A stretch of DNA of 48,235 nucleotides. Origin: Bacteroidales bacterium. Lineage in GTDB: Bacteria; Bacteroidota; Bacteroidia; Bacteroidales; UBA10428. Location: assembly GCA_016926235.1 (NCBI GenBank), contig JAFGOZ010000284.1, positions 1-48,235 on the forward strand. Direction: 5' to 3'. The notes under the pieces were generated by a model, which saw only the letters and a program-made list of their open reading frames with translations, was not told the DNA's origin and ran no database searches. Positions 1-21,852 of the stretch are shown piece by piece. Every line of letters begins with the position of its first letter. Position 1 is the stretch's first letter. The position numbers and the translations under genes are program-made.

Positions 1-3000
1 TGACTCATTAAAAATCCAGTGAAATACCTCGGCAGTTCCCGATGAGCTTAATTGAGTTTCGTTAATATCGGAACAGAATTCAGTTTCGCCTTCGATGAGA
101 ATTGTTGGTTTATCGGGAGATTCAAAAACAGTAACATTCACTGCATTTTGGCTGGGCTTTGAGCAGTCTTCGCTGTTAACTACAACCACAAAGTATTCTC
201 CCGAAACGCCAGCCTTTAGAATATTTGAAGCAAATTCTGCCTGGTGTAGGCCGTTTCGATACCAATAGTATTGTAAGGTTTCATCGTTGTAAATACTGAA
301 AGTTATGGTGTCGCCCAAGCAAATAACCTGGTCATCGCCCGGAACAATTTGTGGCACCGCGGGTACACCTACAATTTCGATTTCTATTGTGTCTGATTCT
401 ATGTTTTTACACAAACTTGCATTGTTTACAACTGTAATTGAGTACATACCTGAATCGGTTGCAAAAACTGCCCCGGCGTTGCCAATAATTACCGAATCTT
501 TATACCAGTAGTAAGAATACCCGCTTAATACAGGAGTTGTAAGTTTGCAGGTATCGCCTTTGCACAGCCTGTTGTGGTAACCTTCTTCTATTGTTATCTG
601 CGGGGTAGGCGGGTTCTCTGAAACAGTGATAAGGGCAGACTCTTCTGAAATACAATTGGCTGTGTTGGTTTCTATTTCAAGGCTGTAGGTATTAACAGAA
701 GCTACATCCTTAATAATCAGAAAGGTGTCGGAAACACCCAGATTATCATTGTTTTTCTGCCAGCGGTAAGTACAGTCGACAAAATAAGGTGCGACCAGAA
801 TTGTGCTATCGTTCTGGCAAAATTGGGTGTTATACGATGAATTGGCTAAATCAATATTGAACTGGGAATATTCAACAACTTCTGCGATTTTCATATCAGT
901 GTCTGAACAACCATTGTTAGCAGTAATGGTAAGTGTTACAGAGGTTGTTTCGTCAAACTTTTCATTAACAGTTCCCTGGTAAAGCGATGAGTCGCCGTTG
1001 CTGTATTTCCAGAGCCAGGAAGCAACCACTACCTGAGAAACATCGGATTGGTCAGCCATTACAGAGGTTTCTCCCTTGCAGACTGGGTCAACTGTAAATG
1101 CTGCTGTTGGCGAGGGTTTTACAATAACTTGGTGGGTTCGGCTTGCACTGTCACCCGATTCGGTGTAGGCCCAAAGTGTTACTTCGAATGTATCGGCTGT
1201 CTGGTAGAGATGGATTGGGTTTGTGGGGTTTTGTTCAGTGGAGGTTGTGCCATCTCCAAAAAACCATTTTCTGGCAATAATTGTATCGGTTGTAACTGAT
1301 GTGTCTGCAAAGGTTGTGGGAGTTCCATAGCAAACAGCTGTGTCATAATTAAAATCGGGGCTGACATCATTAATAATGAATGTGTCAACTGAAGACCATG
1401 TTCCACCAATCATACCGGAAGAAACAGCTTGAACGCCCCATAAATATTCATTAACGGGCAATGAGTCTAAGATAAAAAAATTATTTACTGAAGCGTTTCC
1501 CCGTTCGGGAATATATCTAAAGCCTGTTGCTGTATCACTCATTGGAGAGACGATGTCAAAATCAGAACCCTTGGTAGCAACCCAAACATTATAGGTTACG
1601 CCCTTCTCATTTACAGGTGTCCAGCTTAAACGAATTCCATACCCTTCTGTTTGAGTACTTAATTCAGTGGGGCTATCTAGTTGAGTGGGGGAGTAATTTC
1701 CGTTATTTGTATATTTTAAAACCACCTCTCCAGTTGGAGTTCCCAATCCACTAGATATAAAATCAGGGTCTCTGTCATTGTTTAAGTCAGCCACATCGGT
1801 TAAATATGGCCCTTTTGAAAGTGGTTCAAAGAAATTAGTATTTAATTCTATGTAATCCCCTCCTTCATAGAAATATACTTTCTTGATATTAACACTACTT
1901 TTCCCTGATAATAGGATATCCAAGTCATGATCACCATCAAAATCTATCCATTGGGCCTTTCCTTCAGATATACCTCTTAAAATAAAATTCATTTCAGAAA
2001 AACTATGCATACCATCATTTCGGTATATTTTTGTGTAATTATTTCTATATTCATCAAAACCACATATTAGTAAATCTAAATCACCGTCATGATCGATATC
2101 TCCTAAATCGGCTGAACCATTTGAAAGGTTTTTAATAAAAGCCCCACACGCAGTAAAAATGCCTAAATTATTATAGTAAATGACGGAAGCGCTCGAATCG
2201 GCGACAACTAAATCAATCTGCCCATCTGAATTTAAATCACCCACTACAGATGCCGGATAACCTAAGTCGAAATCGGTTATGCTTTGTGATAAATTAAATG
2301 AAGTATCATTATTGTTTTCATAAATCCAAATACCTGTAACAGATAAAGTGTTTTTTCTCCCTCCTACGAGTATTATGTCTAAATCTCCATCGTTATCAAT
2401 ATCGGCCCAATGGCAGTTGCCAAAACGGAGGCTTTGTAAACCAAAATCCTTTTCTGTGAAATTCCAATTGCCTTCGTTAATAAAAACTAAAGAAGATATA
2501 GCACCCTCAATTTCACCCATAGCCAATAAATCCAAATCTCCATCATTATCAAAATCCCCCCAATCAAATCCACATTTTTTGATAACAGGTAAATTATTAA
2601 TTTTTGTACTAAAAACTCCGGCATCATTTTGTGCAAGAATAGTAGAACTAAAACCTCCGGCTGAAAAATCTAAATCACCGTCTATATCAATATCTGCTAT
2701 CTTTAAATATGGATTATCAGGGTTTAAATTAGTGACATTTATGTCTATTTCTCCTTCTGAGAAGATTTCTTTTATTTGAAAACTTTGCTCTAAAGAGAAG
2801 GCCGAAGCCTTATAGACGCCATCAATGGCTTGTACTTTGTAGAAGTAAGTACCTGCATCAAGCCCTGAAAACTTGAAAGTATTGTTTTTACCGCAATTGC
2901 CAATTCTGCATAATAACTGAGTGCCTGTTGATAATCTGGCATCTGCTCTCTTTAAATCGGCCTGACCTGATGAGGAGCCAATGCTAATATTATAGTTTAA

Positions 3001-4674
3001 ACCATTAATTCCTGATTCGGAATCATTACTCTTTTTCCATTGTATAGTTACTTCATTTCCTCTGGTTGAATAAGTAAATACAGATGGAGTCGAAGGTATT
3101 GAATTCCCTAAATCCCTATTATTCAAAAATATTTTTGCAAATTCTATATCTCCGGGCCCCATACCTGATATCATCAAGTCCAGGTCGTTATCATTATCAA
3201 AATCGGCCCAATCAATATAGCCTTCTTCTGCCGCGCCTGCTACTATATTTTCGACTTCAATAAATGTACCATCGCCATTATTTTTATAAATCAAAGCTGT
3301 CCTGTTCCATCCTTCGTCAAAATACCTGCCAACAGTAGCTATATCTAAATATCCATCATTATTATAATCGCCCCATCGACAGCAACCTCGAGACATGCCC
3401 TGCAGTCCTGCATTAACTTCAAGAAATTCGTCATTGCCATTATTTTCATATATCGATAATACAAAACTATTGTCAATCAATTTTTGACCATTTATTAATA
3501 AATCCAGGTCGCCATCGTTGTCAAAATCGCCCCAATCAAAGTAACCATTATAAATAATTGGAAGACCGGTATCCAATTCTTCAAAAATTAAGTTTCCTTG
3601 ATTTTTATATAATGTTGTATAAAGGTTTCCATCAATAGTTCGTCCGCTTATTAAGATGTCCATTAAGCCATCGGTATTATAATCAGCTATTGAAATTGAA
3701 GGATTTACACCCATATTTTTAATACCTGTTTCAACTTCCGTAAACGTCAAATCTCCATTATTTAAATAGCATTTAGTTATTACCTCATTTGTTAGCATAT
3801 CGTTGCCACAAACAATAATGTCTTTTAAACCGTCATTATCTAAGTCAACACATTTGGCGTTTCCCTGCTCAACTTGTGTTAATCCAGCAGCTACTTCAGA
3901 AAAAACATTTGAGCCCTGGTTTTCAAAGAGTTTTGTCATGCCAGGGGAAACTATTCCTGCTACCAACAAATCCAGATCACCGTCATTATCAATGTCGCCC
4001 CAATCTTGATTAATAGTGTTTTGTCCGGAAATATCAGTTGGTATTTGTGTAAAAGAACCAGATCCATTATTAACATGAATTCTATCATTCAGAAATACAT
4101 CCATATCTCCATCTGAGTCACTATCGATTATCGAAAATGGATAGTATGTTCCTGAAAAAACCTGGCTACTTTCAGTAAAGGTGTGTATGCTTACTTCATA
4201 ATCTTCCGTTTCGCCATATGTGTAATTTCCACACGGGGTATTATAAAAAGTACCATAAGCACACCTTATTCGAAGTCTTGTTTTAACAAACGGATTATCG
4301 GAAGGAACTGTAAATGGAATAGAGTTTGTCTGATAAGTGGCTGTTGAATGAACATATCCTAAATATTCATTTGCATCATCAAAGTCACCATCATTGTTAT
4401 AATCTAACCAGGCATAGTAATAGTTGGAACTGAAATTGCCACTGGTGATACTAAGATTGTAACTATTCCCAACAATTAGCTCAGTGGTCAGGTTATCATA
4501 AAGGGTATAAGTTGATCCTGAGCACCCAGTTGAATTATTTGAAAGGGTATTTAATACAACTCCATTAATGAAATCAAAAGAACAACCAGATGTATGATTT
4601 ACTGCGCAATAGTCCTGGCAGTTTGTAATCTTGAGAAATGCAATGGTAACTATGAAAACAACAGCGGGTTTCAT
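1..4674 (-). CDS. Giant secreted GEVED / FG-GAP / PKD / Ig-like repeat protein, 3' end outside window
   Basis: Open reading frame without a stop from an ATG at 4674 to the window edge (at least 1558 codons); the C-terminus is missing. Translation starts with MKPAVVFIVTIAFLKITNCQ, a signal peptide. Domains in order: a GEVED-type domain (about 60-160, ending GETEDYEV); a first block of FG-GAP/VCBS repeats rich in Ca-binding D-x-D-x-DGD motifs (about 165-520); a fibronectin-III-like domain ending with a KVQAID motif (to about 630); a second FG-GAP block (to about 980); another FN3-like domain; PKD domains with FGDGT (about 1100-1270); then Ig-like repeats to the edge. Such proteins are usually exported by T9SS and anchored or released at the surface; the sorting domain is presumably beyond position 1. 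It lies 80 bp downstream of the IS-split paralogue and shares its domain order. Role in adhesion is inference. Confidence 0.85.
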   Translation of the reverse strand, partial: MKPAVVFIVTIAFLKITNCQDYCAVNHTSGCSFDFINGVVLNTLSNNSTGCSGSTYTLYDNLTTELIVGNSYNLSITSGNFSSNYYYAWLDYNNDGDFDDANEYLGYVHSTATYQTNSIPFTVPSDNPFVKTRLRIRCAYGTFYNTPCGNYTYGETEDYEVSIHTFTESSQVFSGTYYPFSIIDSDSDGDMDVFLNDRIHVNNGSGSFTQIPTDISGQNTINQDWGDIDNDGDLDLLVAGIVSPGMTKLFENQGSNVFSEVAAGLTQVEQGNAKCVDLDNDGLKDIIVCGNDMLTNEVITKCYLNNGDLTFTEVETGIKNMGVNPSISIADYNTDGLMDILISGRTIDGNLYTTLYKNQGNLIFEELDTGLPIIYNGYFDWGDFDNDGDLDLLINGQKLIDNSFVLSIYENNGNDEFLEVNAGLQGMSRGCCRWGDYNNDGYLDIATVGRYFDEGWNRTALIYKNNGDGTFIEVENIVAGAAEEGYIDWADFDNDNDLDLMISGMGPGDIEFAKIFLNNRDLGNSIPSTPSVFTYSTRGNEVTIQWKKSNDSESGINGLNYNISIGSSSGQADLKRADARLSTGTQLLCRIGNCGKNNTFKFSGLDAGTYFYKVQAIDGVYKASAFSLEQSFQIKEIFSEGEIDINVTNLNPDNPYLKIADIDIDGDLDFSAGGFSSTILAQNDAGVFSTKINNLPVIKKCGFDWGDFDNDGDLDLLAMGEIEGAISSLVFINEGNWNFTEKDFGLQSLRFGNCHWADIDNDGDLDIILVGGRKNTLSVTGIWIYENNNDTSFNLSQSITDFDLGYPASVVGDLNSDGQIDLVVADSSASVIYYNNLGIFTACGAFIKNLSNGSADLGDIDHDGDLDLLICGFDEYRNNYTKIYRNDGMHSFSEMNFILRGISEGKAQWIDFDGDHDLDILLSGKSSVNIKKVYFYEGGDYIELNTNFFEPLSKGPYLTDVADLNNDRDPDFISSGLGTPTGEVVLKYTNNGNYSPTQLDSPTELSTQTEGYGIRLSWTPVNEKGVTYNVWVATKGSDFDIVSPMSDTATGFRYIPERGNASVNNFFILDSLPVNEYLWGVQAVSSGMIGGTWSSVDTFIINDVSPDFNYDTAVCYGTPTTFADTSVTTDTIIARKWFFGDGTTSTEQNPTNPIHLYQTADTFEVTLWAYTESGDSASRTHQVIVKPSPTAAFTVDPVCKGETSVMADQSDVSQVVVASWLWKYSNGDSSLYQGTVNEKFDETTSVTLTITANNGCSDTDMKIAEVVEYSQFNIDLANSSYNTQFCQNDSTILVAPYFVDCTYRWQKNNDNLGVSDTFLIIKDVASVNTYSLEIETNTANCISEESALITVSENPPTPQITIEEGYHNRLCKGDTCKLTTPVLSGYSYYWYKDSVIIGNAGAVFATDSGMYSITVVNNASLCKNIESDTIEIEIVGVPAVPQIVPGDDQVICLGDTITFSIYNDETLQYYWYRNGLHQAEFASNILKAGVSGEYFVVVVNSEDCSKPSQNAVNVTVFESPDKPTILIEGETEFCSDINETQLSSSGTAEVFHWIFNES

Positions 4675-4754
4675 TTGAGACTGATTTAATATGAGCATAA
4701 TATACAAAACAATCCTCTAAAAGCCAACGAATTATTGATAAATGCATAAAAATG

Positions 4755-7729
4755 TTACTCAATTATCAGATGTTCGGTCCAAACCTTATTTTCTGCAATA
4801 ATACGCAGTGTGTATATTCCGGTTTTTAGGTTTGGATTTTGTTCAGTTCCGATACGATAGGCAGATTTCTCAATTTTCTCAGAAATGATTTTCCTTCCGG
4901 TAATGTCTAAAATTTCCAGGGAGATATAGCCATAATAACTTCCTTCAAAATCGATATTAAAAATTCCCTGACTTGGATTAGGGAAGAGTATGATTGATAA
5001 ATCTGGAGGAGTATAACCGGCTAATTTAAATTTTGTTTTTTCAGTAATAAATGTATCTGCTATGGCTGTGCATCCTGAATCATCAGATATCTCAAGACTT
5101 ATAAAAATTGTATCATTTTCCAGATTTTCAATTGAACCAATCATTAAAATCTTATCTGTTTCATCCTTAACAATTTCATTGTCAATATACCAGCGATAAG
5201 TTGATACATTGTTGTTTGAACAGCCAACATAACAAATTGTAGGTCCGAATATGGTTAGTTTTGGTTTTTCAATGTCTGACTCAAAAGTAAGATCGATTTC
5301 ATCTGATTCTTCAAAACAGCCTCTGTTTTCCGGATTAACAGAAGTTACAAAATATCTCTCTTCTTCCAAAATTCCGATTAATGTTTTACTGGTAGAATCA
5401 AACCATTTTTCATTGCTTCGATTCCAGTAATAGTCGTAATTTGGATTAAAGTTTGTTACTTCGAGAATAACCTGGTCAAAGGGGCATCCGTTTGGTGTCT
5501 GGTTTTCAATGACTGGAACCGTTGGGTATTCAGCAACAGTAACCACAATGGGAGAACTGTATGCACTGCATCCGGATGAGTTTATAACTTCAAGTAAATA
5601 TTCTCCGGCCTCATAAACATCAATATCTGCTAAAGTTTGGTCTGGTATAGCACCTAAAATATCATGCCATTGGAAACTGAGTCCGGTAGGAGAGCTATTC
5701 AGACTTAATCTGACGGTGTTTCCATCACAGATATTTGTACTGGATTGGTTTCTGATTGCAGGTGTAGCTGGATTCTGATTTACAGTTACACTAACAGCTT
5801 CAGATTGTGCTGAGGCGCAATCCTGGGTGTTAATAACAGTGAGCCTGTAATTTCCTGCACTTTTAACAACGATCTCCTTTTCTGAATCTTCATATCCGCT
5901 TACAGACCAAATGTAATCTTTATAACTGGTTGTACCTATCATCCTGATTATTAAAGAGTCGTTTTGGCAGAATGTTGTATTTCCAATACTTTCTAAAACT
6001 GGTGTTGCCGGAGATGGTCTGACTATCAGTATTTTCGAATTTACACTTATGGCATTGCAGTCATGCTCATTAATAATTCTTACTGTATATGTGCCGGCTT
6101 GTGAAGCATCTATGCTGTCGGCAGTCTCGGCAGGTACAATGTCACCATCTTTTAGCCACTGGTAACTAAATTGGGGATTATATGGAACCCTTAACTTACT
6201 GCTATTGCCATTGCAGATATTAAGCGAGCTTTCATTTTCAATCAGATAACCTGTTGGTTCAGGATAATGTATAATGACAACGGTATCGGAAGAGAGTGAA
6301 CTGCAATGATAAACCGTATCTGTAACTTTGGCAATATATACTCCTCTTTCTTTTGCAAATTTCTCATGCGATGAGGTTCCGGTAGATTGGTTATCAATGA
6401 GCCAGTCGAAATGAAGTGCCGGATTATTTGTAACATCAAGTAAAATACTGTCACCAGGACAGAAATAGAAAGTATCTTTTACTGCATTAATCATCGGAAC
6501 ATCTGGTACAGGATTAAAAGTTATCTGTTTGTTGGAACTTGTAGTTGAACATAGTAATCCACTAATATTTGTACTATTCTGAACATATAAGGAATAATTT
6601 CCGGAAATATTTGAAACAGTTAATGAATCAGAGGTTGCTCCCGGAATCTGAACTCCATCCAGATTCCACCTATAAGTATAGTTTGCGTTGGTTTCAGCGG
6701 GATACAGAATAACACTATCACCCAGGCATTTAATAATATTACCAACAGGAATTATTGCTGATGGTGGATTAGGTGCTATGTAAACATTACTTGCATAGGA
6801 ATCAAAACAGGAATTTGTAGCCGTAACAATCAGAGTAACATTATAGGTTCCAGTATCAGTATAAATATGACTGGTATTACCAATTTCGTCAGAAGTTTTG
6901 GAATTTCCAAAATTCCACAGATATGAACTTACGGTGATATTGCTGGTATTTGTATTATCAGTAAAATCAGATACTGTGTTTAAACACACCGGCTCAGAAG
7001 AATACTCTGCCTGAGGTTTGTATTTTACAAATACCTCAGCCGAATCGGTTTGTTCAGTAAACTCTGATACAACTGTTAGTTTTACAGTATAGGTGCCACC
7101 AGTATCATAGGTGTGTGTTGGGTCCTTAAGGGTGGAATTGGAGCCATCGCCAAAATCCCAGAAATAGTTTACTATAATATCTTCACCAAGAACTGTTGAC
7201 TTATCTTCGAAAGTTGTTGGTTGCCCAGCACAAGTTGTATCAAAAGTAAAATCTGCATCGAGAGTAGAAACATAAAATGTATCAATAAAAGACCATGGTC
7301 CTCCTGAAAATGACTGATCAATAGCCTGTACACTCCAATAATATTTACCGGGTTCTAATCCACTAACCTTCCAGCTGTGTCCATAAGATGCATTTCCAGG
7401 TTGAGGTATATATCTGTAACCAGTTGACAAGTCCGATTCGGGTTGAATAATTTCATCACAATCAATAGTTGTTCCTAAACGAATATTGTATGAGTAACCA
7501 TATTGGTTATTTATCTTATCCCAATTTAGAAAAATATCTAACCCATTTTGTTCAAAGGACAAATTTTGAGGAGCACTATTTACTCTTTCGCTTGTACCCC
7601 AATTGTTATAAAGTATACAGGTTTGAAGTGGACTCATAAACCCATAGACTATATCAAGTCCTTTTTGATTATCTAAATCTGCAAAAACAATAGGAATATT
7701 ATCGTGTAGCAAGTAGCCACTAAAATCTA
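4755..7729 (-). pseudogene. C-terminal half of an IS-split giant FG-GAP / PKD / T9SS protein
   Basis: Reading frame with no proper start; the only candidate near the front is a TTG at 7712, which is an ordinary Leu codon of the unbroken gene. It begins inside an FG-GAP repeat (VFADLDNQKGLDIVYG), then an FN3-like domain with YYWSVQAIDQ, two PKD domains (WDFGDGS at about 185, WNFGN at about 265), about six Ig-like repeats, and a type-A T9SS sorting domain over the last 80 residues (LFPNPSQGIFNIDF ... TGIYTLRI). No signal peptide, so it cannot be exported by itself. The missing front is the frame at 9365-12304: deleting 7730-9387 fuses the two in frame (…TYTID|FSGYLLHDN…), giving 1963 residues. 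It may still be transcribed from within or through the IS. Confidence 0.85.
7725..7729. repeat. Target site duplication ATCTA, left copy
   Basis: ATCTA directly abuts the left terminal repeat of the IS and is repeated at 9383-9387 directly outside the right end. A 4-5 bp duplication is usual for IS1380-family elements. The flanking coding frame becomes continuous when one copy is removed with the element. Confidence 0.9.
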
Positions 7730-7747
7730 CCTAGATTCCGCAAGTAA
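7730..7747 (+). repeat. IS left terminal inverted repeat
   Basis: CCTAGATTCCGCAAGTAA; pairs with 9365-9382 on the other strand with mismatches only at positions 5 and 7. The inner CCGCAAGTAA block is identical in both ends and likely holds the transposase binding site. Confidence 0.9.
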
Positions 7748-7760
7748 ATTGTTGAAAAAA

Positions 7761-7793
7761 GCTGTAAAGCTTACTGCATTTGGGCTTTACAGC
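7761..7793. other. Hairpin inside IS left end
   Basis: GCTGTAAAGC (7761-7770) and GCTTTACAGC (7784-7793) form a perfect 10-bp stem with a 13-base loop, 44 bp before the transposase start. There is no T-run, so it does not look like an intrinsic terminator. Hairpins of this kind can mask the translation start on transcripts entering from outside the element and so limit transposition; that role is inferred. Confidence 0.65.
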
Positions 7794-7837
7794 TAAGGTA
7801 TTTTCACCTAAATTGGTGTTGCTTACAAAATACCGAT

Positions 7838-9142
7838 ATGAAAATACTAAATAGTGCGCCAATTTCTCCATTTGGGGGCTTAAACTTTGTTCTCAAAGAA
7901 TTCGACAATCTTAAAATTGATCAGATATTTAAAGATAACCTTCCTAAGCTATCATCAAACAGCAAATACAAATGGAAAGATATCCTATATTCTTTTTGGT
8001 CGATTTACTTTTGTGGAGGAGAAAGCATAGAAGATTTAGGTCATAATTTTAAAAACTTTTTGTGTGACATTCCTTATATGAATGTACCAAGTCCTGACCG
8101 AATATTAAGTAGATTTAAGGAACTTTCGGTTCCAAAGTCTTTTCGAAAGAGTCCCCGAGGGAAGGCCATTAACGAGTTGAGCGAAAATAAAGCACTAAAC
8201 TCATTAAATATTAAGCTACTAAAGAAACTTAATCCTAAAAAATATACTCGTAATGACCTAACACTGGATTACGACAATACGATTATTTATACCGAAAAGG
8301 CAGATGCAAAAAACACTTATTTAAAAGCTTTTGGATATCAGCCGGGAGTAGCGATTATAGGTAACGATATTGTTGGTGTTCAAAATAGAAATGGCAACAG
8401 TGTTGCTTACGCTTTACAGGATGAAACTTTAAAAGTAATTTTTGAAAACCTTAAATCAGAAGGGGTTCAGGTAAAAAATTTTAGAGCTGATAGTGCATCT
8501 TACAATTTTAATATCCTGAGTCTGGTTAACCAATATGTTGACAACGTGTTTGTTCGCGTAAAAATGAGCGAGAGTGTTTATGAAGTTATTAACTCTATAG
8601 ATAAATGGACGCAAATAGACACGAAAGATGGTAGAACATTATATAGAGGTTCCGCAGTTTTTACACCTTTTAAGAAAACTGCTAAGGAGCAAAATAAAAA
8701 AGAGCTGCTTAAAGAATATAAAATTGTTGTTACAAAAGAAGCTAATTGCGATGGACAGCTTAATATGTTTACCAATGAAGCTTGTGTATATGGTTGTATT
8801 ATGACTAATGATTTCACTAAAACAGATGACGAAATTGTATTCTTTTATAATCAAAGAGGAGCGACAGAACGAGAATTTGATGTACTGAAAAATGATTTTG
8901 GTTGGCAAAACCTACCTTTCTCAAAGCTTGAGCAAAACACAGTATTTCTAATACTTACTGCTATATGTCGTAACTTATATAACTATATTATTAGTCACTT
9001 CTCTAAAATATATAAACACCTAAAATCTAATTTCAGAATTAAGAAATTCATCTTTCGTTTTGTTTGTATACCTGGCAAATGGGTGAAATCGGGTAGAACT
9101 ATGAAGTTAAGGCTGTATGGCTCTTTGGCCTTTAAGACATAG
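7838..9142 (+). CDS. IS1380-like DDE transposase
   Basis: 434 residues from an ATG at 7838, a normal length for the family. It catalyses cut-and-paste transposition of the surrounding IS with an RNase H-like DDE fold. Candidate acidic residues: D144/D146 in LDYDN, D218 in RADSAS, and E344/E346 in GATEREFD, followed by FGWQNLPFS, a stretch typical of DDE_Tnp_1/IS1380 enzymes (Y/R-x-E region). The C-terminal basic segment (KFIFRFVCIPGKWV) is also typical. The frame is unbroken, so it is probably active. The family call is confident at the level of DDE_Tnp_1; IS4 is the main alternative, but the ends and the 5-bp duplication favour IS1380. Confidence 0.92.
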   Translation: MKILNSAPISPFGGLNFVLKEFDNLKIDQIFKDNLPKLSSNSKYKWKDILYSFWSIYFCGGESIEDLGHNFKNFLCDIPYMNVPSPDRILSRFKELSVPKSFRKSPRGKAINELSENKALNSLNIKLLKKLNPKKYTRNDLTLDYDNTIIYTEKADAKNTYLKAFGYQPGVAIIGNDIVGVQNRNGNSVAYALQDETLKVIFENLKSEGVQVKNFRADSASYNFNILSLVNQYVDNVFVRVKMSESVYEVINSIDKWTQIDTKDGRTLYRGSAVFTPFKKTAKEQNKKELLKEYKIVVTKEANCDGQLNMFTNEACVYGCIMTNDFTKTDDEIVFFYNQRGATEREFDVLKNDFGWQNLPFSKLEQNTVFLILTAICRNLYNYIISHFSKIYKHLKSNFRIKKFIFRFVCIPGKWVKSGRTMKLRLYGSLAFKT

Positions 9143-9364
9143 CCTAAAGAAATATTGAACAGCCAAATCTTACTATTAAACAAATTAACAAAGTGTGCCT
9201 TTGATATAAAAACCTATGCCTTAACCGTTTGTCTCAAGAGAATCAAACCCCATTCTGTTATAATTTTTTAAGTAAAGAAGCAAAACGTCCAAAATACCAC
9301 CACGAAAAGGAAGGGAAATAATACTTTGTCGCACAATAAGTCCAACTATTTAGGCTTGTATTTA
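9143..9364. other. Non-coding tail of the IS
   Basis: 222 bp between the transposase stop and the right terminal repeat. No convincing coding frame or second open reading frame is seen on either strand. Confidence 0.6.
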
Positions 9365-9382
9365 TTACTTGCGGATTTTAGG
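9365..9382 (-). repeat. IS right terminal inverted repeat
   Basis: Read inward on the minus strand it is CCTAAAATCCGCAAGTAA. It supplies the last five codons (Pro-Lys-Ile-Arg-Lys) and the TAA stop of the truncated gene that reads into it from 12304. Confidence 0.9.
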
Positions 9383-12304
9383 ATCTATTGTGTAGGTGTC
9401 AACGATTTCTTCATTTTCAACAATATAAACTATTATATAATTAACGTCTGGATTGTCGCTTGAATAAACAATAATATCTAAATCACCGTCATAGTCCCAA
9501 TCTGCCCAATAATTACCAACCCTATCCCAACTTTGTAACCCAAGATTAGCCTCATTAAAAATCCCATTATCATTAATGTAGATCTTTGAATATTTATTTT
9601 GGAAGCTGTCTACTCCGGTCAGGAAAATATCAGGTTGTCCATCAAGATTAAAATCTCCTTTATAAATTTTTGACATTTTAAATATTAGTCTTCCGAGTTT
9701 ATCGTTCGTAATTGGAATTTTGTTAAAATTGAAGTTACCCTGGTTCTTGTATAAATAAATGCCAGGACTATCCAACGAGTCTGTACCGTATATTATAATA
9801 TCGTTATCCAGATCACCATCGAAATCTCCTGCAACAGCATCACAGAATATGAACCCTTCTATATTATGTTCTGCAAGGGTGAAATTTGTGTCTCCTTGAT
9901 TTTCATACAATAATGTTGTTAGTGGGCGTGGGAATACTTTAGTATCCTCGCCAGATGTTAGTAAATCCTTATCTCCATCGTTGTCAAAATCAGCAAAAAG
10001 GGTAAAGCCATCGTTAAGATTATAGAACCATATGGAACTATCATGAACGAAATTTGAACCAACTCTTTGGACTAAAAACGCGAGACTATCGAATTCCCTG
10101 GAAATTAAAAAGTCAATATCATTATCATTTCCAAAATCTACTGGTTCAATGTCATCTATGTCATATAGCCCAAATTTAATGTTAAGATTCATAGTATCTT
10201 CGTTCCAGGATACATAACCATTCGTGTTAGTAATAATTCTTAAAGTATCATCAATAGTAAAGAAGATATCTTGGTCATTGTCCATGTCAAAATCCCACCA
10301 AGCGGCAGCTTCGGCATGAATTGTCTCAACAGCACAATAATTATCAAATTGATCATCAATAGTAAAGGTCTGTTCAAAAGCGAAAGTTGAACCTACTCTA
10401 CTGTTATCAATTGCCTGTACGCTCCAATAATATGTTCCGGGCGACAGATTTTTTATGATCCAGCAAGTATCCTGAATATATCCTGGAACAGATATAAGTC
10501 TTTTCCCGGAAGGAATAACTGAATGTGGGCTCACAATATCATCTCCCTGACTTACTGTTCCAATATAAATGTTATATGTAAGAGATTTCTGGTTTGTTGT
10601 ATTATCAGTTGATGGATTCCAATTAAGTATAACGCCAGTTCCAAAAACATTCGAAGATAGATTTGTTGGAGCTGTAGGGGCTGTATTCTGTATAAGACTC
10701 TCGTTTTTATATATTTTAGTTGAAAAGGCACTGAAAGCCATCGATACATAGCGTGATCCATTCAGAACAATATCTAAATCATTATCATTATCAAAATCTC
10801 CGAATTCGCAATTATTAATTTTATACGTTCCTGTTGTAAATGGTAGAGCCGATAATGAGTCATTTGAATGATTAATAAAAAATGAGTTGTTGCTATTTAT
10901 ACCTACAAAGAAGTCCAATAAACCATCATTATTAATATCTCCAAATTCAACGCCATTTACAGAGCCAGCAGGAAGATTTGCATCAGACTCGTGGAATGAT
11001 TCTCCAGTATCATTAATATACAAGATAAGTTCAGAACTTAGACCATTCATTCCATTTAATAAAAGATCTGGATAACCATCTTCATTAAAATCGCCCCAGG
11101 CAAAATTTGTACCTTCCATGTTTCTAAATTGATATGGATGTGGGGAATAGCTGCCGTTTTCATTTTCCAGCAAGATAGTAAAGGTATTACCGTTATTATC
11201 GTTTCCACTTAGAAAAACATCAAGGTCACAATCAACATCAAAGTCAATAAATTGAACCTCTCCCCAATATATACCGGGAAGTTCAATACCACTATTAGTA
11301 AATACCCCATTATTATTTGTGTATATTGAAGTTGTTGCTACACTTGCACCATTTAGGCCACAAATTATTAGATCATAGTCGCCATCGTTATCATAATCCC
11401 CCCAATCAAGACTTCCACTTTCAACATATTCAAAATTTGCAGTTTGTTGTAAGGAGAATGTATGATTACCGGAACCGTCTATATTATCCAGGCGATAAAT
11501 TCCTGTATAGTTTGAACTATTCCTTCCAGTAAAAACATAATCAGGATCTCCGTCATTATCATAATCGAACCATTTATGTGTGCCGTCTCCAATGGCGGTA
11601 AAACTATTTGCCGTGGAAAAAACGCCGTCGTCATTTCTACAAAAGACTCCTCTGAAAAAAGATAGTGTTGTGGAATATCTACCAGAAATACTTAGATTCA
11701 TATCTCCATCCTGATCAGTATCTACCCATCGTGATGTACCTGACGAAGAGGGTTGGGTAGTATCATATTTAGCATAAATTGCATCGTTTTTTATGAATAC
11801 TGTATAATCCTCAACTTCGCCATAAGCAAATGGCCCGCATGGATCTTGATTTACTACATTCCAAACACATAAAACCCTTAACCTGGTTTCACCTCCCAAT
11901 GATGTATCAGGCACTGTAAAACTTATTGAATTGATTTGATTGGGAGCTGTTGTTATAAACTCTCCAAGCTTTTCATCAGATCCATAAAAATTTCCATCCC
12001 TATTATAATCAATCCAGGCCATATAGTGCATGTTTGAATAAAATGGACTTCCAGTAATATAGATTGAAAAGGTCGAATCTTTTGAAAGAGTAGTTGATAA
12101 GTATGTATAATTGTTATAGGTTGGATTTGATATGCCTCCAGTATTTAGATTTGAAATATCTTCTAATTCAACCCCATTTATATAGGTATCATAAATAGGA
12201 CCATAAGTTGAAGTGGGCACACAATACTGGCCCAAAACACTAACAGAAAGGATAAACAAAAGCCCCAAAAGACTAACAGGCTTAAATGTGAGAAAAGATT
12301 TCAT
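9365..12304 (-). CDS. N-terminal half of the IS-split giant GEVED / FG-GAP protein
   Basis: ATG at 12304 gives MKSFLTFKPVSLLGLLFILS, a good signal peptide; an upstream TTG at 12340 only adds 12 polar residues and is not preferred. 979 residues, of which the first 974 are native and the last five come from the IS end. Order: signal peptide; GEVED domain (about 80-170, WIDYNRDGNF ... GEVEDYTVF); FG-GAP/VCBS block with many D-x-D-x-DGD motifs (about 185-540); FN3-like domain with YYWSVQAID; second FG-GAP block cut at its last repeat (WADWDYDGDLDIIVY). It lacks the PKD, Ig-like and T9SS sorting parts, which lie at 4755-7729. It could still reach the periplasm but should not be sorted to the surface. 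It is divergent from the sensor gene at 12534. Confidence 0.87.
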   Translation of the reverse strand: MKSFLTFKPVSLLGLLFILSVSVLGQYCVPTSTYGPIYDTYINGVELEDISNLNTGGISNPTYNNYTYLSTTLSKDSTFSIYITGSPFYSNMHYMAWIDYNRDGNFYGSDEKLGEFITTAPNQINSISFTVPDTSLGGETRLRVLCVWNVVNQDPCGPFAYGEVEDYTVFIKNDAIYAKYDTTQPSSSGTSRWVDTDQDGDMNLSISGRYSTTLSFFRGVFCRNDDGVFSTANSFTAIGDGTHKWFDYDNDGDPDYVFTGRNSSNYTGIYRLDNIDGSGNHTFSLQQTANFEYVESGSLDWGDYDNDGDYDLIICGLNGASVATTSIYTNNNGVFTNSGIELPGIYWGEVQFIDFDVDCDLDVFLSGNDNNGNTFTILLENENGSYSPHPYQFRNMEGTNFAWGDFNEDGYPDLLLNGMNGLSSELILYINDTGESFHESDANLPAGSVNGVEFGDINNDGLLDFFVGINSNNSFFINHSNDSLSALPFTTGTYKINNCEFGDFDNDNDLDIVLNGSRYVSMAFSAFSTKIYKNESLIQNTAPTAPTNLSSNVFGTGVILNWNPSTDNTTNQKSLTYNIYIGTVSQGDDIVSPHSVIPSGKRLISVPGYIQDTCWIIKNLSPGTYYWSVQAIDNSRVGSTFAFEQTFTIDDQFDNYCAVETIHAEAAAWWDFDMDNDQDIFFTIDDTLRIITNTNGYVSWNEDTMNLNIKFGLYDIDDIEPVDFGNDNDIDFLISREFDSLAFLVQRVGSNFVHDSSIWFYNLNDGFTLFADFDNDGDKDLLTSGEDTKVFPRPLTTLLYENQGDTNFTLAEHNIEGFIFCDAVAGDFDGDLDNDIIIYGTDSLDSPGIYLYKNQGNFNFNKIPITNDKLGRLIFKMSKIYKGDFNLDGQPDIFLTGVDSFQNKYSKIYINDNGIFNEANLGLQSWDRVGNYWADWDYDGDLDIIVYSSDNPDVNYIIVYIVENEEIVDTYTIDPKIRK
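9383..9387. repeat. Target site duplication ATCTA, right copy
   Basis: Identical to 7725-7729, directly outside the right end of the IS. On the minus strand it encodes the end of the Ile-Asp codons at the break. Confidence 0.9.
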
Positions 12305-12375
12305 GTGGTTTGATTTACAATTATTTACGTAAATAATCAAAAAAAGTTATAGATAAAACTGCACCAAATATTTTG

Positions 12376-12392
12376 TTGTATATAGTATACAA
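12376..12392. promoter_or_regulatory. Palindrome TTGTATA-TAG-TATACAA between divergent genes
   Basis: A perfect 7-3-7 inverted repeat in the 229-bp gap between the surface-protein gene (start 12304, minus) and the sensor gene (start 12534, plus). There is no T-run, so it is not a terminator. Its position suits an operator for either or both genes. The TGTATA half-site is also in the inverted repeat at 26363-26395. AT-rich background lowers confidence. Confidence 0.4.
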
Positions 12393-12533
12393 TTTACAAC
12401 TTCAAGGTAGCCGTTTCAAAACAGAGTATCAACAATTTCAGGGCATTGGTCAATTTAACGATTTTAATCATCTTAATAAAAAGTATTCTCTTGTATGTTA
12501 TGATTTTGTAACTTGGTTTTAAAATCACAGTCA

Positions 12534-15500
12534 ATGAATCGTCAATCTACTATTAAACAAGCAGTTTACAAGCATTGTGTATTTTTATTACTATTCTTTC
12601 TCGGCAGTACACAATTAATAGCTCAAAAATATTCATTTACAAGTTTCTCAATTAAAGATGGATTACCCAATTCATCAATAAGTGTGTTGTACCAGGATTC
12701 CCGCGGTTTAATATGGATTGGAAGCCAGGGCGGTGGCCTTTGTCAGTACGATGGCTATAATTTTTATCCTCTTGAAATTGATGATGCCTCAAAAACAACC
12801 AATATTTTCGATATAGCTGAAGATACTCTGGGCAGAATATGGTTTAGCGCCGATTCCGGTTTGTTTATCTTCGATGGTGAAAAATTAAGCCAGCCAATCA
12901 CATATAATGAAACTGGTAAAATCGGGAAATTATTTTGTGAAAAGTCCGGCCTTATCTGGTTATTGACTAAAGATAAAGGAGCGCTTCGGGTTAACCCCGC
13001 GAGCCAGGTAAAGATTATTGAAAAATACGGTATCGAATCCGGCTTGAAGTCAAATCATTACATCGATATTGAAGAAGATCTTTTTGGCAGATTCTGGTTG
13101 GTTTCCGACAGCAATCTTACAATATTGGATCCTGCTCAGGAAATGAATACTATTGATCTGGGATTGAAATATGCTATTCCTCCGGTTAAGATTACTGCAA
13201 TTGATGCGGCAAGTTCGTCAGAAATATGGATTGGCACTGCAAATAAAGGAGTTATTTTACTGTCGTATGACTCGTTATCATGTTACGAAAAAAGAAGCTA
13301 TAACAGCTATTTCTATGATATCGATGATAATATTCTTTCAGTTACTGTTGATAAAAGCGATAATGTATGGATTGGTACAGATGATAACGGTCTGATTTAT
13401 ATCGATTATCCTTTTGTAAAAATACTGGCAGCTGAGAATGGACTTGAATCAAACATGGTTACCGATATCCTGGAAGATTCTGAAGGGAATGTCTGGTTTG
13501 GAACACAAAATAGTGGAGTTAAACTTTTTGCCGGTTGGCAATTCATTCATTACGATTCAAAATCAGGACTGCCTGACAATGCTATAAGCTCTATTGCTCA
13601 GGACAGAAGTGGGAACTACTGGTGCACCGGTAGCCTGGGACTGTATCGTTTTGCAAGAGATAACGACAGATTGGAGTATGTACAGAATGTAATGCTTGAT
13701 GATTTTGAAAATGTCGATATAAACCGAATACTGTTTCTTACGGGAAATAATATAATTTTTGGAACAGCTTCAGATGGAATTCTATTAATCAGAGATAATA
13801 AGGTTTATCATTATAATGAAACTCAAGGATTGGCAGGAAATGAGGTAAACTGTCTTTATGCTGATACCAGTAAAATCTGGATAGGAACAGGGAAGGGTTT
13901 ATCGCTGCTGACTAAAGACACTCTAATGGATTTGACACATAAGCAAGCTTCACTTGCAAATGGAGTTAATGCTATTGTTCAGGATAAAAAAGGGAATGTA
14001 TACCTGGGAAGCAATAATGGTATTGTTGTTCTAAAGGGTGAAGAAGTCTTGCGGTTTGGTAAAGCAAATAATTTAATGCATGTTCGAATAAACTCATTGG
14101 TTTTGGATGAGAAAAACAACCTCTTTGTTGGAACGCTGGGCGGTGGAATATATACATGTTCTGTAGATAACATTTCGGGAAATACACTTTTCAAGACTTT
14201 TGCCGGAGATGGAAAATTGTTGTCAGATAATGTTTTTTCTATGGCAAAATTTAAGGATACTTTGCTTGTTGTCGGCACCGATAAGGGAGCTAATATAATA
14301 GAAATAGAATATGACTCAATTCCATTAGTTTCTGCCATTCATAGCTACGATAATTCCAACGGTTTTTTAAATACAGAATGCAATCCGAATGCCATTCTGG
14401 TTGATCAATCATCGTATGTGTGGTTTGGCACTAAATCCGGACTTACCTGCTACGACAGGCAACGTGAGCAGAAATACCATAAAAAGCCTCGAATTTATCT
14501 TACAGGTCTGGAGGTAAACTTCGAAGCTGTTAAGTGGCAATCAAAAGATGACGGACCGGATGAATGGTATAGTTTTCCGAAAAATTTAAAGTTAAAGCAT
14601 AACGAAAACTATTTAAACTTTTCTTTTTCCGGGGTTTATTTCTCTGAAGGATTACAATACCAGTATTTTCTCGAAGGGTTAAACCGCGATTGGAGTAACC
14701 CAAGCCTTGAACGTACCGAGGACTTCTCAAAACTTAGTCCCGGGAAATATAATTTCAGAGTCAGGGCAGTAACAAAATCAGGTTTAATTAGCGACGAACA
14801 AAGCTTTGCTTTCAGAATTAAACCTCCTTTCTGGCGAACATGGTGGTTTACTCTTCTTTTCTTTGCTGCAATTATTTACCTGGTAATCTGGTATATCCGG
14901 TACAGGGAACAAAAACTAAAACACGATAAAGAAGTTCTTGAAGAAACCGTAAAACAGCGAACCCAGGAAATCAGGGAGCAGAAAACGCACATTGAACAGC
15001 AAAAACAGGAACTCACCGATAGCATAGAATATGCGAAACGTATACAAGATGCTGTTATTTCTCAACCTACGGGGATAGAGAAATATCTTAGCGATTATTT
15101 TATAATGTTCCTGCCGCGCGATATTGTTAGTGGCGACTTCTACTGGTTTGGCGAATACGATAATAAATTTATATTCTCTGTAGCCGACTGCACCGGTCAT
15201 GGCGTTCCGGGAGCTTTCATGAGCATGTTGGGAATACGTTTGTTAAACGAGATTGTGTTAGAACGAGGGGTAACTGCTCCTAACGAGATACTCGATCAGT
15301 TAAGAGATGGAGTTATACATGCCCTAAAACAGGAAGGCAAAGAATCGACGACTAAAGACGGTATGGATATGGCCCTTTGTACTATTGATAAATCAAAGGG
15401 TAAACTTTATTTTTCGGGTGCCTATAATGCTCTTTGGCTAATCAGGGGAGATGAAGTTTTAACCTATAAAGCAGATCGAATGCCAGTGGCAATTTACTTT

Positions 15501-15758
15501 AAACTGAACGATTTTACCTGCCACGAAATTGATTGCCAACCCGGCGATCAGCTTTATTTATTCTCCGACGGATTCCCTGATCAGTTTGGTGGTCCGGAAC
15601 AGAAAAAATACATGTCGAAAAAACTGCGCGAAAATTTACTTTCTATTTCACATTTACCAATGGATCAACAAAGAGAATACCTGCTTAAAGAGTTTTATGA
15701 ATGGAAAGGCGACTCCGAACAAATAGACGATGTTTCTTTAATGGGGGTGAAGATTTAA
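12534..15758 (+). CDS. Membrane sensor: Reg_prop propeller, Y_Y_Y domain and SpoIIE/PP2C phosphatase
   Basis: 1074 residues from ATG 12534; a TTG at 12513 would add seven residues ahead of a normal signal peptide and is not chosen. Signal/anchor segment (VFLLLFFLGSTQLIAQ), then about a dozen Reg_prop repeats (pattern LPNSSI...D..G..WIGS) that should form periplasmic beta-propellers, a Y_Y_Y domain (about 690-755), one membrane helix (about 770-788), a basic coiled coil (about 790-840), and a SpoIIE-type PP2C phosphatase (855-1074) with the metal-site motifs VSGDFYW, ADCTGHGVPGAFMS, GMDMALC and FSDGFPDQ, ending QIDDVSLMGVKI. No histidine kinase or response-regulator domain is present. The likely output is dephosphorylation of an anti-anti-sigma-type partner, not encoded here; the external signal is unknown. 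Paralogue at 28160, with near-identical C-terminal half. Confidence 0.92.
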   Translation: MNRQSTIKQAVYKHCVFLLLFFLGSTQLIAQKYSFTSFSIKDGLPNSSISVLYQDSRGLIWIGSQGGGLCQYDGYNFYPLEIDDASKTTNIFDIAEDTLGRIWFSADSGLFIFDGEKLSQPITYNETGKIGKLFCEKSGLIWLLTKDKGALRVNPASQVKIIEKYGIESGLKSNHYIDIEEDLFGRFWLVSDSNLTILDPAQEMNTIDLGLKYAIPPVKITAIDAASSSEIWIGTANKGVILLSYDSLSCYEKRSYNSYFYDIDDNILSVTVDKSDNVWIGTDDNGLIYIDYPFVKILAAENGLESNMVTDILEDSEGNVWFGTQNSGVKLFAGWQFIHYDSKSGLPDNAISSIAQDRSGNYWCTGSLGLYRFARDNDRLEYVQNVMLDDFENVDINRILFLTGNNIIFGTASDGILLIRDNKVYHYNETQGLAGNEVNCLYADTSKIWIGTGKGLSLLTKDTLMDLTHKQASLANGVNAIVQDKKGNVYLGSNNGIVVLKGEEVLRFGKANNLMHVRINSLVLDEKNNLFVGTLGGGIYTCSVDNISGNTLFKTFAGDGKLLSDNVFSMAKFKDTLLVVGTDKGANIIEIEYDSIPLVSAIHSYDNSNGFLNTECNPNAILVDQSSYVWFGTKSGLTCYDRQREQKYHKKPRIYLTGLEVNFEAVKWQSKDDGPDEWYSFPKNLKLKHNENYLNFSFSGVYFSEGLQYQYFLEGLNRDWSNPSLERTEDFSKLSPGKYNFRVRAVTKSGLISDEQSFAFRIKPPFWRTWWFTLLFFAAIIYLVIWYIRYREQKLKHDKEVLEETVKQRTQEIREQKTHIEQQKQELTDSIEYAKRIQDAVISQPTGIEKYLSDYFIMFLPRDIVSGDFYWFGEYDNKFIFSVADCTGHGVPGAFMSMLGIRLLNEIVLERGVTAPNEILDQLRDGVIHALKQEGKESTTKDGMDMALCTIDKSKGKLYFSGAYNALWLIRGDEVLTYKADRMPVAIYFKLNDFTCHEIDCQPGDQLYLFSDGFPDQFGGPEQKKYMSKKLRENLLSISHLPMDQQREYLLKEFYEWKGDSEQIDDVSLMGVKI

Positions 15759-17086: not shown

Positions 17087-20000
17087 TTATTTCAGTATTA
17101 ATATTTCATTCTGATCATACTCAGCTGATTCAAGCCTGACTATATAGGTTCCTTTCATCAAACCAGCCACATGAATCTTTGTTTGATATCTTCCTGCTGA
17201 CGGTAAAATTTTATGTTCCGATACCAGTTCTCCTGTTATTGTAAATATACTAACTTTTAAAGGATCTGAGGAGAGGGTTATTCCTTCAATATAAAACAAT
17301 TCAGAAGCTGGATTTGGAGATATATTAACTTTATGATTTTCTATGGTGCTTCCTGTAAGAGTATTTGAATTATCTGACCAAAAGTTTGCCTGGAACCCAT
17401 TACCATTATCCGTGCCATTTGAAATAAACTCAATATACAGCTTGTTGCTTGTTGAGGCAATTACTGCTTTCGGAATATTTTCATTGTCGTAAATACCAAT
17501 TAAGCTTGAGCTAGCATCCTGGCCATCATAGACAATTAGTTGGTCACCTGGGATTATGTCGAAGCTGTCGGATACAATTTCAAAGTAAATTTTCTGAGCG
17601 CCAGCTGGAGTGAGGAGCCAGTTACAACTTAAGTTATCCGAATAATTATTCTCTGTACAACCATGATTTATAGAACCACTTTTTTCATAAATAATTTCTC
17701 CACCAGAGCATGGCGTGCATAAAACTTGAAGATATATTGAATCAGATACTGAACAACCAAAATTATTAGTACCCTCCACAAAATACTTAGTGCTAATAAG
17801 GGCGCTTGAAATCACCGTATCGTTATAAACTTCGTTAAGCCTGTATACGGGTGACCATTGATAGTTAACAGCACCGGAAGCAACTAAAGTAGATTGCTCT
17901 CCTATGAAAATAGGATTGTTTGATTCAGTAATATGGGTTGTTGGAATTGGTCTGACAATTACAGAAACAGAATCATAAGCTTTACAGCCAGAAGAATCAA
18001 TGGTTTGTTCAAGGAAGTATTTATTATCTGATAATGGTTTTACATAAGGGTCAGAAACTGTTTGAATAGTTTCTCCTTCATTGTTTTTCCAAGAATAACT
18101 GTTTCCTGTGCTATTTTTACTTCCAATCTGCACTGAATCGCCAAAACAAATCTCTTCGTTTTTTGAAAAGTTTATTTCTGGAAGGGTATGAATGGTAAGT
18201 TCAGCTTCAGTATTTAAACTCTGGCAATTATTTACTTCCTGGGAAACATACCAGGTATATGCTCCTGCATCTGAAATACCATGAGAAAATGTATTGCCAG
18301 TATCAACCTGGCTGGTTCTTTCAGCATCCTCAAACCATTTAACATTAATTCCAGTTGCAATAAAATCAGGAATACTATCACCAAAACAAACAGAAATTTC
18401 ATCTATCATAGGGGCTGAAGGCACAGTAATAATAACTATTTCAATTTTGGCATGAGGGCCTTCACAGCCGTCAATACTTTCAGTCACATAATAATTTTTT
18501 ATTCCAACAGTATTTTCCGGTGAAAGGAGATTGTTGTTTCCAATTATAGATGAGTGGTTAAAATCGGCATACCAGGTTAATGTACCGTCTTCTGTTGTAC
18601 TTGCCTCAATATCAGAAATTGCCTCTCCAAAGCAATAGCTTGTGTCAGGGCTTACCACTGGGGCTAAAGGGGCATCAGGATTTGTAATTATAATATCCTC
18701 AGGATTTATCTCACATTCATTATTATTTCGAACAATAGGATAATAGCTTCCAATTGATAAATTGGTAAACCCATTTGTCGCAAAGAAGTTTTCACCATTA
18801 TCAACGGAGTATTCCAAACCATTACCTTTTACATAGAAAGTAATAGAGCCATTTTCAGAGGCACAATCACTTACAGCTGTGGTAATTATGGAATCAATCT
18901 GTGGTATGGGATGAATTGTAAGGGTGTCTCTTGCAGCTTCACTTTCACAATTCTTTATAGTTTCAGTAACATAATAGACATAGGATCCTGCTAACGTTTT
19001 ACCAGTAGTAAAGGTATTGCCTGAAAAGACTTCATTTGCTAATTCAGCATCGGAATACCAGGTTATATCTGTTCCTTCGGCACCTAGTTGTGGTATAGTT
19101 GAATTTGAACATGCACTTAGGTTGGTAGAAGTTGGAGCTGCAGGTGTTACATTAACAGTTATGCTTAAAGGAGCAGAAGCAGCGCTTGAGCCACAACCGT
19201 TCGAAGATATAACGGTGATATCTCCTGATTGTGCATCTGAACTGTAGTCAACTGAAATTGAATTTGTGTTTTCACCTTCAGAAACGGAAGCGCCATCAGG
19301 TAAGTTCCAGGTATATATTTCAGCAAAGGCTATTTCTGGAACATCGTAATGAACAAACGGTTCTCCTGAGCAAACAATCTGTTTACCTGTTATAGTTCCA
19401 GGATTATCCGGGAAATCGTTTATGGTCACGGTAACAGTATTGGCATTGCCCTCACAACCATTTGTTGTTTGTGTTGCGTAATAAGTATAACTACCGGCAT
19501 CTGTTTGGCCGTGATTGTATGTACTGCCTTCATATACCAGGTTTGTTAGCTCACCATCGCTGTACCATTTAATAGCTGACCCAATAGCAGTTAATGGGTC
19601 TATTGTTTCACCATAGCAGTTTGAAACGCTAGAAGCTTCAGGTTTATCCGGTAATTCAATAATACTCACAATAACAGAATCTGTTGCTGTACACCCAACT
19701 GCATCGCTAACTGTAACAACAAATGTGTCTGCAGAGCTAATTGTTAATGAACTTTCTGTAGAACCATCCGACCAGAGATAGCTGTTAAATCCGCTTTCAG
19801 CTAATATGGTCGAATCATTTCCTTTGCAGATAGCAAAATCTGCTTGTAAACTTGTTGAAAGCTCGTAATGGCTTATAGTTTTTCTTAGTGTGTCGTTATC
19901 CCTGTTTTCATCTCCGGTCAGGCTTACAACTGCAATACAGTTATAATTTTGAACAAAAGAAAAATCTGCAGTTTGTGTAAAGGTGTAGATAAGTGTATCT

Positions 20001-20707: not shown

Positions 20708-20868
20708 ATATAGACAACCGCCCTTGGAGCCAGCAGTATTATCTGAAATGATGCAGTTATTAATTTTGAGTATATCATCAGATAAATAGTCTGCAAATAT
20801 AGCCCCTCCCTTTCCAAGGGTATAGTTGTCTGAGATTTCACATTTTTGTAATTCAAGTGTAGAATTTC

Positions 20869-21819: not shown

Positions 21820-21852
21820 TTTTATATTATTATTTTGAGAGATCAAGCACTT

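What the first reader, a model, noticed from the sequence alone, without database searches (positions are those of the whole stretch)
4755..12304. IS insertion splits a 1963-residue surface protein, and the original frame can be rebuilt exactly
The frames at 9365-12304 and 4755-7729 look like two separate genes but are one. The IS at 7730-9382 is flanked by ATCTA on both sides. Deleting 7730-9387 joins codon ATA-GAT directly to TTT-AGT-GGC-TAC with no frame change and completes an FG-GAP repeat. The order then matches the next-door paralogue (signal, GEVED, FG-GAP, FN3, FG-GAP, FN3, PKD, Ig). An automatic annotation would report two unrelated proteins, one with a false TTG start at 7712 and one with a tail (PKIRK) that is IS-encoded.
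Basis: seen in the sequence. Interest (0 to 1): 0.8.

Follow-up and report, generated by a model that had tools for sequence, protein, structure and literature searches.

The report
Surface protein gene split by transposon
A small mobile DNA element has jumped into the middle of one large cell-surface protein gene of an uncultured bacterium, so that what looks like two genes is one broken gene; this is an ordinary event, cleanly documented.

Summary
Confirmed, and mostly ordinary. An IS1380-family element (7730-9382, 1653 bp, 18-nt imperfect terminal repeats, open transposase frame) lies in a minus-strand gene, flanked by the 5-bp duplication ATCTA. Leaving out 7730-9387 in a script gives one open frame of 1963 codons. 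A tandem paralogue, a homologue in another genus, and 100 of the 120 listed database homologues align across the site within one protein. The gene looks like a type IX secretion cargo: GEVED and FG-GAP on the 5' half; PKD, Ig and a sorting tail on the 3' half. The break parts the apparent export signal from the sorting tail, so neither half should be displayed (inference). Corrections: Pfam sees no FG-GAP repeat across the junction, and the next-door paralogue is cut by the contig end. New detail: a hairpin with a T run 30 nt inside the IS's left tip, facing the 3' half, is found in 8 of 8 elements with at least 41% transposase identity, this one included; the insertion may thus be transcriptionally polar too.

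The parts
9365..12304 (-). 5' half of the split gene: apparent N-terminal signal peptide (by eye), GEVED domain, FG-GAP repeats; the last 5 residues (PKIRK) and the stop come from the IS
   Evidence: GEVED 63.7 bits, cut-off 24.4; FG-GAP_3 123.9 bits, cut-off 26.9, 8 stretches
4755..7729 (-). 3' half of the split gene: degenerate FG-GAP-like stretch, sub-threshold FN3, two PKD stretches, Ig-like domain, T9SS sorting tail; no evident signal peptide; mechanical start TTG at 7712
4761..4988 (-). type IX secretion type A sorting domain (Por_Secre_tail)
   Evidence: 39.1 bits, cut-off 27; TIGR04183 31.8, cut-off 23
11798..12025 (-). GEVED domain (P0002 residues 106-181)
7730..9382 (+). IS1380-family insertion sequence, 1653 bp
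   Evidence: only match in the assembly
7838..9142 (+). IS1380 transposase, 434 aa, open frame
   Evidence: NF033539 211.5 bits, cut-off 180
7730..7747 (+). left terminal inverted repeat
   Evidence: 18 nt, 89% complementary to the right one
9365..9382 (-). right terminal inverted repeat
7725..7729 (.). target site duplication ATCTA, left copy
9383..9387 (.). target site duplication ATCTA, right copy
7755..7794 (-). hairpin (7760-7794, 11 pairs, 13-nt loop) followed on the minus strand by five T (six with the last stem base), pointing out of the IS left end into the 3' half; terminator-like
   Evidence: the tool's own terminator scan lists this hairpin on the plus strand only
1..4707 (-). tandem paralogue g2 (GEVED, FG-GAP, PKD, Ig-like), unsplit, running off the contig start

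Best explanation
A single gene for a 1963-residue surface repeat protein, probably a T9SS cargo, was interrupted by transposition of an IS1380-family element, which duplicated its 5-bp target ATCTA. Shown from sequence: the element, its ends, the duplication, the unbroken reading frame on either side, and read-through homologues. Inferred: translation from the gene's own start runs five codons into the IS and stops, giving a truncated exported protein without a sorting tail; the 3' half has a sorting tail but no export signal, and may also lie behind a terminator at the IS's left end. So the gene is most likely a knock-out, and probably a recent one (both halves fully open, duplication perfect), its loss cushioned by at least two tandem paralogues and about a hundred other genes with sorting tails.
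For: IS ends, inverted repeats and target duplication; IS1380 transposase over the curated cut-off; 1963 codons in frame with no internal stop, against a stop-triplet frequency of 5.6% on that strand of the window; paralogue g2 aligns in one BLASTP segment to residues 14-1562 (30% identity) across the junction at residue 972, and a 1884-aa protein of another genus of the family (G012) covers 827-1962 in one segment at 29%; 100 of the 120 listed homologues have one segment covering residues 922-1022, the best, P0004, at 41% over 1655 columns; complementary domain sets on the two halves; SprA present (2504.6 bits, cut-off 200) and 112 Por_Secre_tail matches in the genome, 108 marked over cut-off.
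Against: No IS-free allele of the same species was found, so the empty site is inferred. The 20 best read-through homologues shown are only 28-41% identical, and the junction lies in a weakly conserved stretch: identical positions within 30 columns either side are 13 of 40 with g2, 8 of 34 with g3, 6 of 41 with G012. 20 of the 120 homologues lack a segment across the junction window, and 378 of the 498 hits were not listed and so not compared. Signal peptide and effect on export are not tested. Only one assembly is available.
Confidence: 0.94

Rival explanations
1. The join is an assembly artefact: an IS from elsewhere in the sample was placed between the halves of an intact gene by the assembler.
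For: The genome is a 239-contig draft, and an 85-87 bp identical repeat stands where this very contig stops, so repeats do disturb this assembly.
Against: An artefact would not create a perfect target duplication exactly at both tips of matched inverted repeats. Only one copy is in the assembly, and an element present in many places should have broken the contig, as the 87-bp repeat seems to have done (inference).
Confidence: 0.03
2. The IS sits between two genes that were always separate.
For: Each half is open on its own and is listed as an ORF; 20 of 120 listed homologues show no segment across the junction window.
Against: Exact frame continuity without an internal stop, no sorting tail on the 5' half and the sorting tail on the 3' half, no signal on the 3' half (by eye), and single-protein homologues across the site.
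Confidence: 0.02
3. The insertion is a reversible switch: precise loss of the IS would restore the gene, so that the population varies in surface display.
For: Insertion is clean and the duplication perfect; a neighbouring T9SS gene changes frame at a run of seven G on its coding strand, the kind of tract that can vary in length.
Against: No second allele seen in the searches made; precise excision is not an expected outcome for such elements (recalled).
Confidence: 0.04
4. Both halves are expressed as separate working proteins, the 3' half driven by an outward promoter of the IS.
For: Outward promoters are known in IS1380-family elements such as ISEcp1 and ISPme1 (PMC9330008, passages seen).
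Against: The left IS end, which faces the 3' half, carries a terminator-like hairpin; the promoter-like matches in the region are modestly above shuffles (49 found; shuffles 37.4, sd 5.9) under a model that does not cover Bacteroidota promoters (recalled); the 3' half has no evident export signal (by eye).
Confidence: 0.02

Closest known systems
IS1380-family insertion sequences (NCBIfam NF033539; ISEcp1 and ISPme1 as named in PMC9330008)
   Same: Transposase over the curated cut-off, terminal inverted repeats, short target duplication.
   Different: Those two are described for outward promoters and gene capture (PMC9330008, passages seen); here the element simply interrupts a gene, and its left tip carries an outward-facing terminator-like hairpin.
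T9SS type A cargo proteins with FG-GAP, PKD and Ig-like repeats in Bacteroidota (e.g. P0004, 1794 aa, named as from a Bacteroidales MAG)
   Same: GEVED, FG-GAP, PKD and Por_Secre_tail in one protein, 41% identity over 83% of the query.
   Different: Here the gene is cut in two by the IS, separating the apparent signal from the tail.
IS-inactivated surface protein genes in general
   Same: Gene interrupted by a mobile element with target duplication (recalled as commonplace).
   Different: Nothing essential.

Membership tests
IS1380 family | transposase matches the family model | tested here: met
   NF033539 211.5 bits, cut-off 180; PF13701 58.4, cut-off 34.7
IS1380 family | terminal inverted repeats | tested here: met
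   18 nt, 89% complementary, at the exact tips
IS1380 family | short target duplication of 4-5 bp and length about 1.5-2 kb (family rule recalled) | tested here: met
   5 bp, 1653 bp
IS1380 family | catalytically active DDE transposase, mobile element | not testable with these tools
   frame open; catalytic residues not checked; single copy, no second insertion seen
T9SS type A cargo protein | C-terminal sorting domain | tested here: met
   PF18962 39.1 bits, TIGR04183 31.8 bits, on the 3' half and not on the 5' half
T9SS type A cargo protein | N-terminal Sec signal peptide | tested here: inconclusive
   hydrophobic N-terminus on the 5' half seen by eye; no predictor available
T9SS type A cargo protein | secretion machinery in the same genome | tested here: met
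   SprA TIGR04189, 2504.6 bits, cut-off 200; other components not searched
intrinsic transcription terminator (IS left end) | stem followed by a T run, outward (minus) strand | tested here: met
   11 pairs then T5; rule met in 8 of 8 elements at >=41% transposase identity (this one included) and 1 of 13 at <=37%; same rule on the plus strand 1 of 8 and 2 of 13. Against: the scan, which allows loops up to 8, does not list it on the minus strand and does list it on the plus strand
intrinsic transcription terminator (IS left end) | stops transcription | not testable with these tools
   needs a reporter assay

The most novel reading that the evidence does not exclude
A subgroup of Bacteroidota IS1380 elements carries a conserved, outward-facing intrinsic terminator about 30 nt inside its left tip, so that insertions opposite to the host gene, like this one, block transcription as well as translation. 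The hairpin keeps its pairing while its sequence changes: in 7 sequences, 5 of 11 pairs show a change on both sides, three of them in one divergent copy (L122), one in L120 and one in this element.
Probability: 0.4. Interest if true: 0.35.

Novelty: new member of a known kind. Interest (0 to 1): 0.2.

Why it matters
Mainly a correction of annotation: what reads as two genes is one broken gene, and giant T9SS repeat proteins in draft genomes should be checked for such splits. The terminator-like hairpin in this IS subgroup, if it works, would make such insertions polar in one orientation and gives a simple test.

Tried and rejected
Looked for an IS-free allele: 8 same-genus genomes (best match to the 5' half E 5.3e-30; to the 3' half E 6.1e-20); the protein collection with the read-through protein (498 hits among 7993 scored candidates, 120 listed; best-scoring 41%) and with the 5' half (1187 hits, 120 listed; apart from the window's own P0244 none listed above 41%). 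The three protein searches went to the read-through protein, the transposase and the 5' half, so the 3' half was not searched there. 16S naming failed: no SSU match in the assembly. Placement rests on MurG (best identity 58%, to MAGs labelled Bacteroidota, Draconibacterium and Prolixibacteraceae; the best 80 of 341 relatives kept; the tool says very near records may be left out).

Considered an outward IS promoter for the 3' half: the promoter scan gives 49 against 37.4 (sd 5.9) in shuffles over 8.1 kb and does not cover Bacteroidota promoters; not taken as evidence.

Results against the terminator reading: terminator-like sites as a whole are near chance (6 found; shuffles 3.8, sd 2.1). That scan lists this hairpin on the plus strand (tail AAGGTATTTT), not on the minus strand, because on the minus strand the loop is 13 nt and the scan stops at 8 (my explanation; loops of the close relatives are 3-5). 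The fold z-score of -2.92 (1 of 200 shuffles as good) is for the whole 108-nt leader, which holds a second hairpin. The first hairpin test gave L120 a T count of 3; I let the T run begin inside the stem end after seeing that, so the criterion was adjusted; with the T run required after the stem, 7 of 8 pass. The stem lengths printed allow one mismatch (the '12' of this element is 11 pairs plus a mismatch). On the plus strand the same rule is met by 3 of 21 (L120, L129, L130), and L136, though not called, has five T after its stem there too. Single shuffled leaders meet the rule in 2 to 20 of 100. One search took 21 leaders; left out were L033 (leader cut at 20 nt), L131, L134, L133, L135 (further copies in genomes already counted, same result), and L035-L037 (partial matches, given to neither script). 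In the probability of the novel case I went from 0.45 to 0.4 on finding that the scan speaks for the other strand.

Paper searches: GEVED/FG-GAP/T9SS (0 papers); IS1380 with terminator and hairpin (0 papers); IS terminator polarity (listings only); T9SS with FG-GAP and PKD (listing); T9SS phase variation (listing); IS in T9SS adhesins (listing); IS1380 in Bacteroides (listing, of which two papers were looked at by passages).

Full report
What is there. The window is positions 1-48235 of contig C133 of a 5.22-Mb, 239-contig draft genome. MurG from the window is at most 58% identical to the named genomes kept, the nearest being MAGs labelled Bacteroidota, Bacteroidales, Draconibacterium and Prolixibacteraceae, so the host is an uncultured, probably environmental member of the Bacteroidales (inference). 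On the minus strand, two open stretches (12340-9365 and 7730-4755; 991 residues each as translated) are separated by an element of 1653 bp that carries a plus-strand gene for a 434-aa transposase.

The element. The transposase passes NCBIfam's IS1380 model (211.5 bits, cut-off 180). The element's tips are 18-nt inverted repeats, 89% complementary, at 7730-7747 and 9365-9382, and it is flanked by ATCTA on both sides; a 5-bp match at fixed borders has a chance probability of about 0.0015. It is the only match in the assembly. Counting this genome itself, related transposases occur in 13 of 99 relatives at E<=1e-3 (some of them fragments), 16 of 392 genomes of the order at E<=1e-60 and 2 of 395 of the class at E<=1e-100; a metagenomic protein is 94% identical (P0124).

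One gene, not two. Leaving out 7730-9387 in a script joins the halves without a frame change: 5892 bases, 1963 codons, one stop, at the end. The stop-triplet frequency on that strand of the window is 5.6%. Codon-position G+C agrees between the halves (0.43/0.36/0.26 and 0.42/0.40/0.26), while the IS read in that orientation differs (0.30/0.31/0.37). The tandem paralogue g2 (1-4707, minus) aligns to residues 14-1562 in one BLASTP segment across the junction at residue 972, at 30% identity; paralogue g3 on contig C178 aligns to 354-1562 in one segment; a single 1884-aa protein of another genus in the family (G012) aligns to 827-1962. Of 498 database homologues, the 120 listed were compared: 100 of 120 have one segment covering residues 922-1022. 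Against this, local identity at the junction is low (13 of 40 positions with g2, 8 of 34 with g3, 6 of 41 with G012), 20 of the 120 show no such segment, and no allele of the same species without the IS was found.

Domains. 5' half: GEVED and eight FG-GAP_3 stretches. 3' half: two PKD_4 stretches, Ig_7 and Por_Secre_tail; TIGR04183 agrees. An FN3 match in the 3' half is below cut-off. The claim that the join completes an FG-GAP repeat is not borne out by Pfam: in a 281-residue piece across the junction, the only FG-GAP_3 match is residues 29-91, wholly on the 5' side; the paralogue alignment does suggest a degenerate repeat downstream.

How it most likely works. The genome has the T9SS protein SprA and 112 Por_Secre_tail matches, 108 marked over the cut-off, so the intact protein would be a T9SS cargo (inference from the sorting tail). 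The insertion separates the apparent Sec signal (5' half, by eye) from the sorting tail (3' half). The 5' product ends in PKIRK, read from the IS; the 3' half is opened by the ORF list only at TTG 7712. Near the left tip of the IS, on the minus strand, stands a hairpin of 11 pairs with a 13-nt loop, followed by five T (7760-7794, T run 7755-7759). In 21 leaders of related elements, a stem with a T run in this orientation was found in 8 of 8 with at least 41% transposase identity, this one included, and in 1 of 13 with at most 37%; on the plus strand the same rule is met in 1 of 8 and 2 of 13. Across seven of them, 76 of 77 cells pair (98.7%), and five of 11 pairs change on both sides, three in the divergent copy L122, one in L120 and one in this element. 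Against this reading, the tool's own terminator scan lists the hairpin on the plus strand and not on the minus strand. Termination is inferred, not shown; a paired DNA site for transposase, or a leader structure controlling the transposase, would also conserve the pairing.

Surroundings. Contig C133 ends inside g2 at an 85-bp overlap shared with both ends of contig C178; C178 holds a sorting-tail end (2-1210) that fits g2, and a third paralogue (1290-6053), which also runs off its end. So at least three genes of this type exist, apparently in tandem, which would cushion the loss of one (inference).

Literature. Outward promoters and gene capture by IS1380 elements are described in PMC9330008 (passages seen); terminators predicted within IS elements are mentioned in general in PMC9208149 (passages seen). 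A search for IS1380 together with terminator, hairpin and transposase found no paper in the held library.

Verdict. The finding is correct and well observed, but it is an ordinary IS knock-out in a draft genome. The only point that may be new is the conserved terminator-like left end.

Noticed in passing
17087-21846 (minus), frame change at about 20880-20886: ORFs 20869-21846 and 17087-20707 look like one beta-helix T9SS gene whose reading frame changes at a run of seven C (G on the coding strand), the longest G/C run in the window: an indel, a length-variable tract or an assembly error.
   Followed up: partly
window 1-87 and L038 (contig C178) both ends: An identical 85-87 bp segment is shared by the end of g2 and by both ends of C178, which suggests a third tandem GEVED/FG-GAP paralogue downstream and shows where the assembler stopped.
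   Followed up: yes
7755-7794: Terminator-like hairpin with T run, 30 nt inside the left tip of the IS, kept in related IS1380 elements.
   Followed up: partly
L039 (G012) 9881-15535 and 5978-9865: In another genus of the family, two homologous FG-GAP/PKD genes stand in tandem and unsplit beside a gene with a caspase-like look; the window has a similar-looking gene at 27249-28154 (the caspase label is by eye).
   Followed up: no
12513-15758 and 28160-31381: Two similar large plus-strand proteins (sensor-like repeats with a phosphatase-like end, labels by eye) stand on either side of the two other T9SS-tailed genes at 17087-26280.
   Followed up: no
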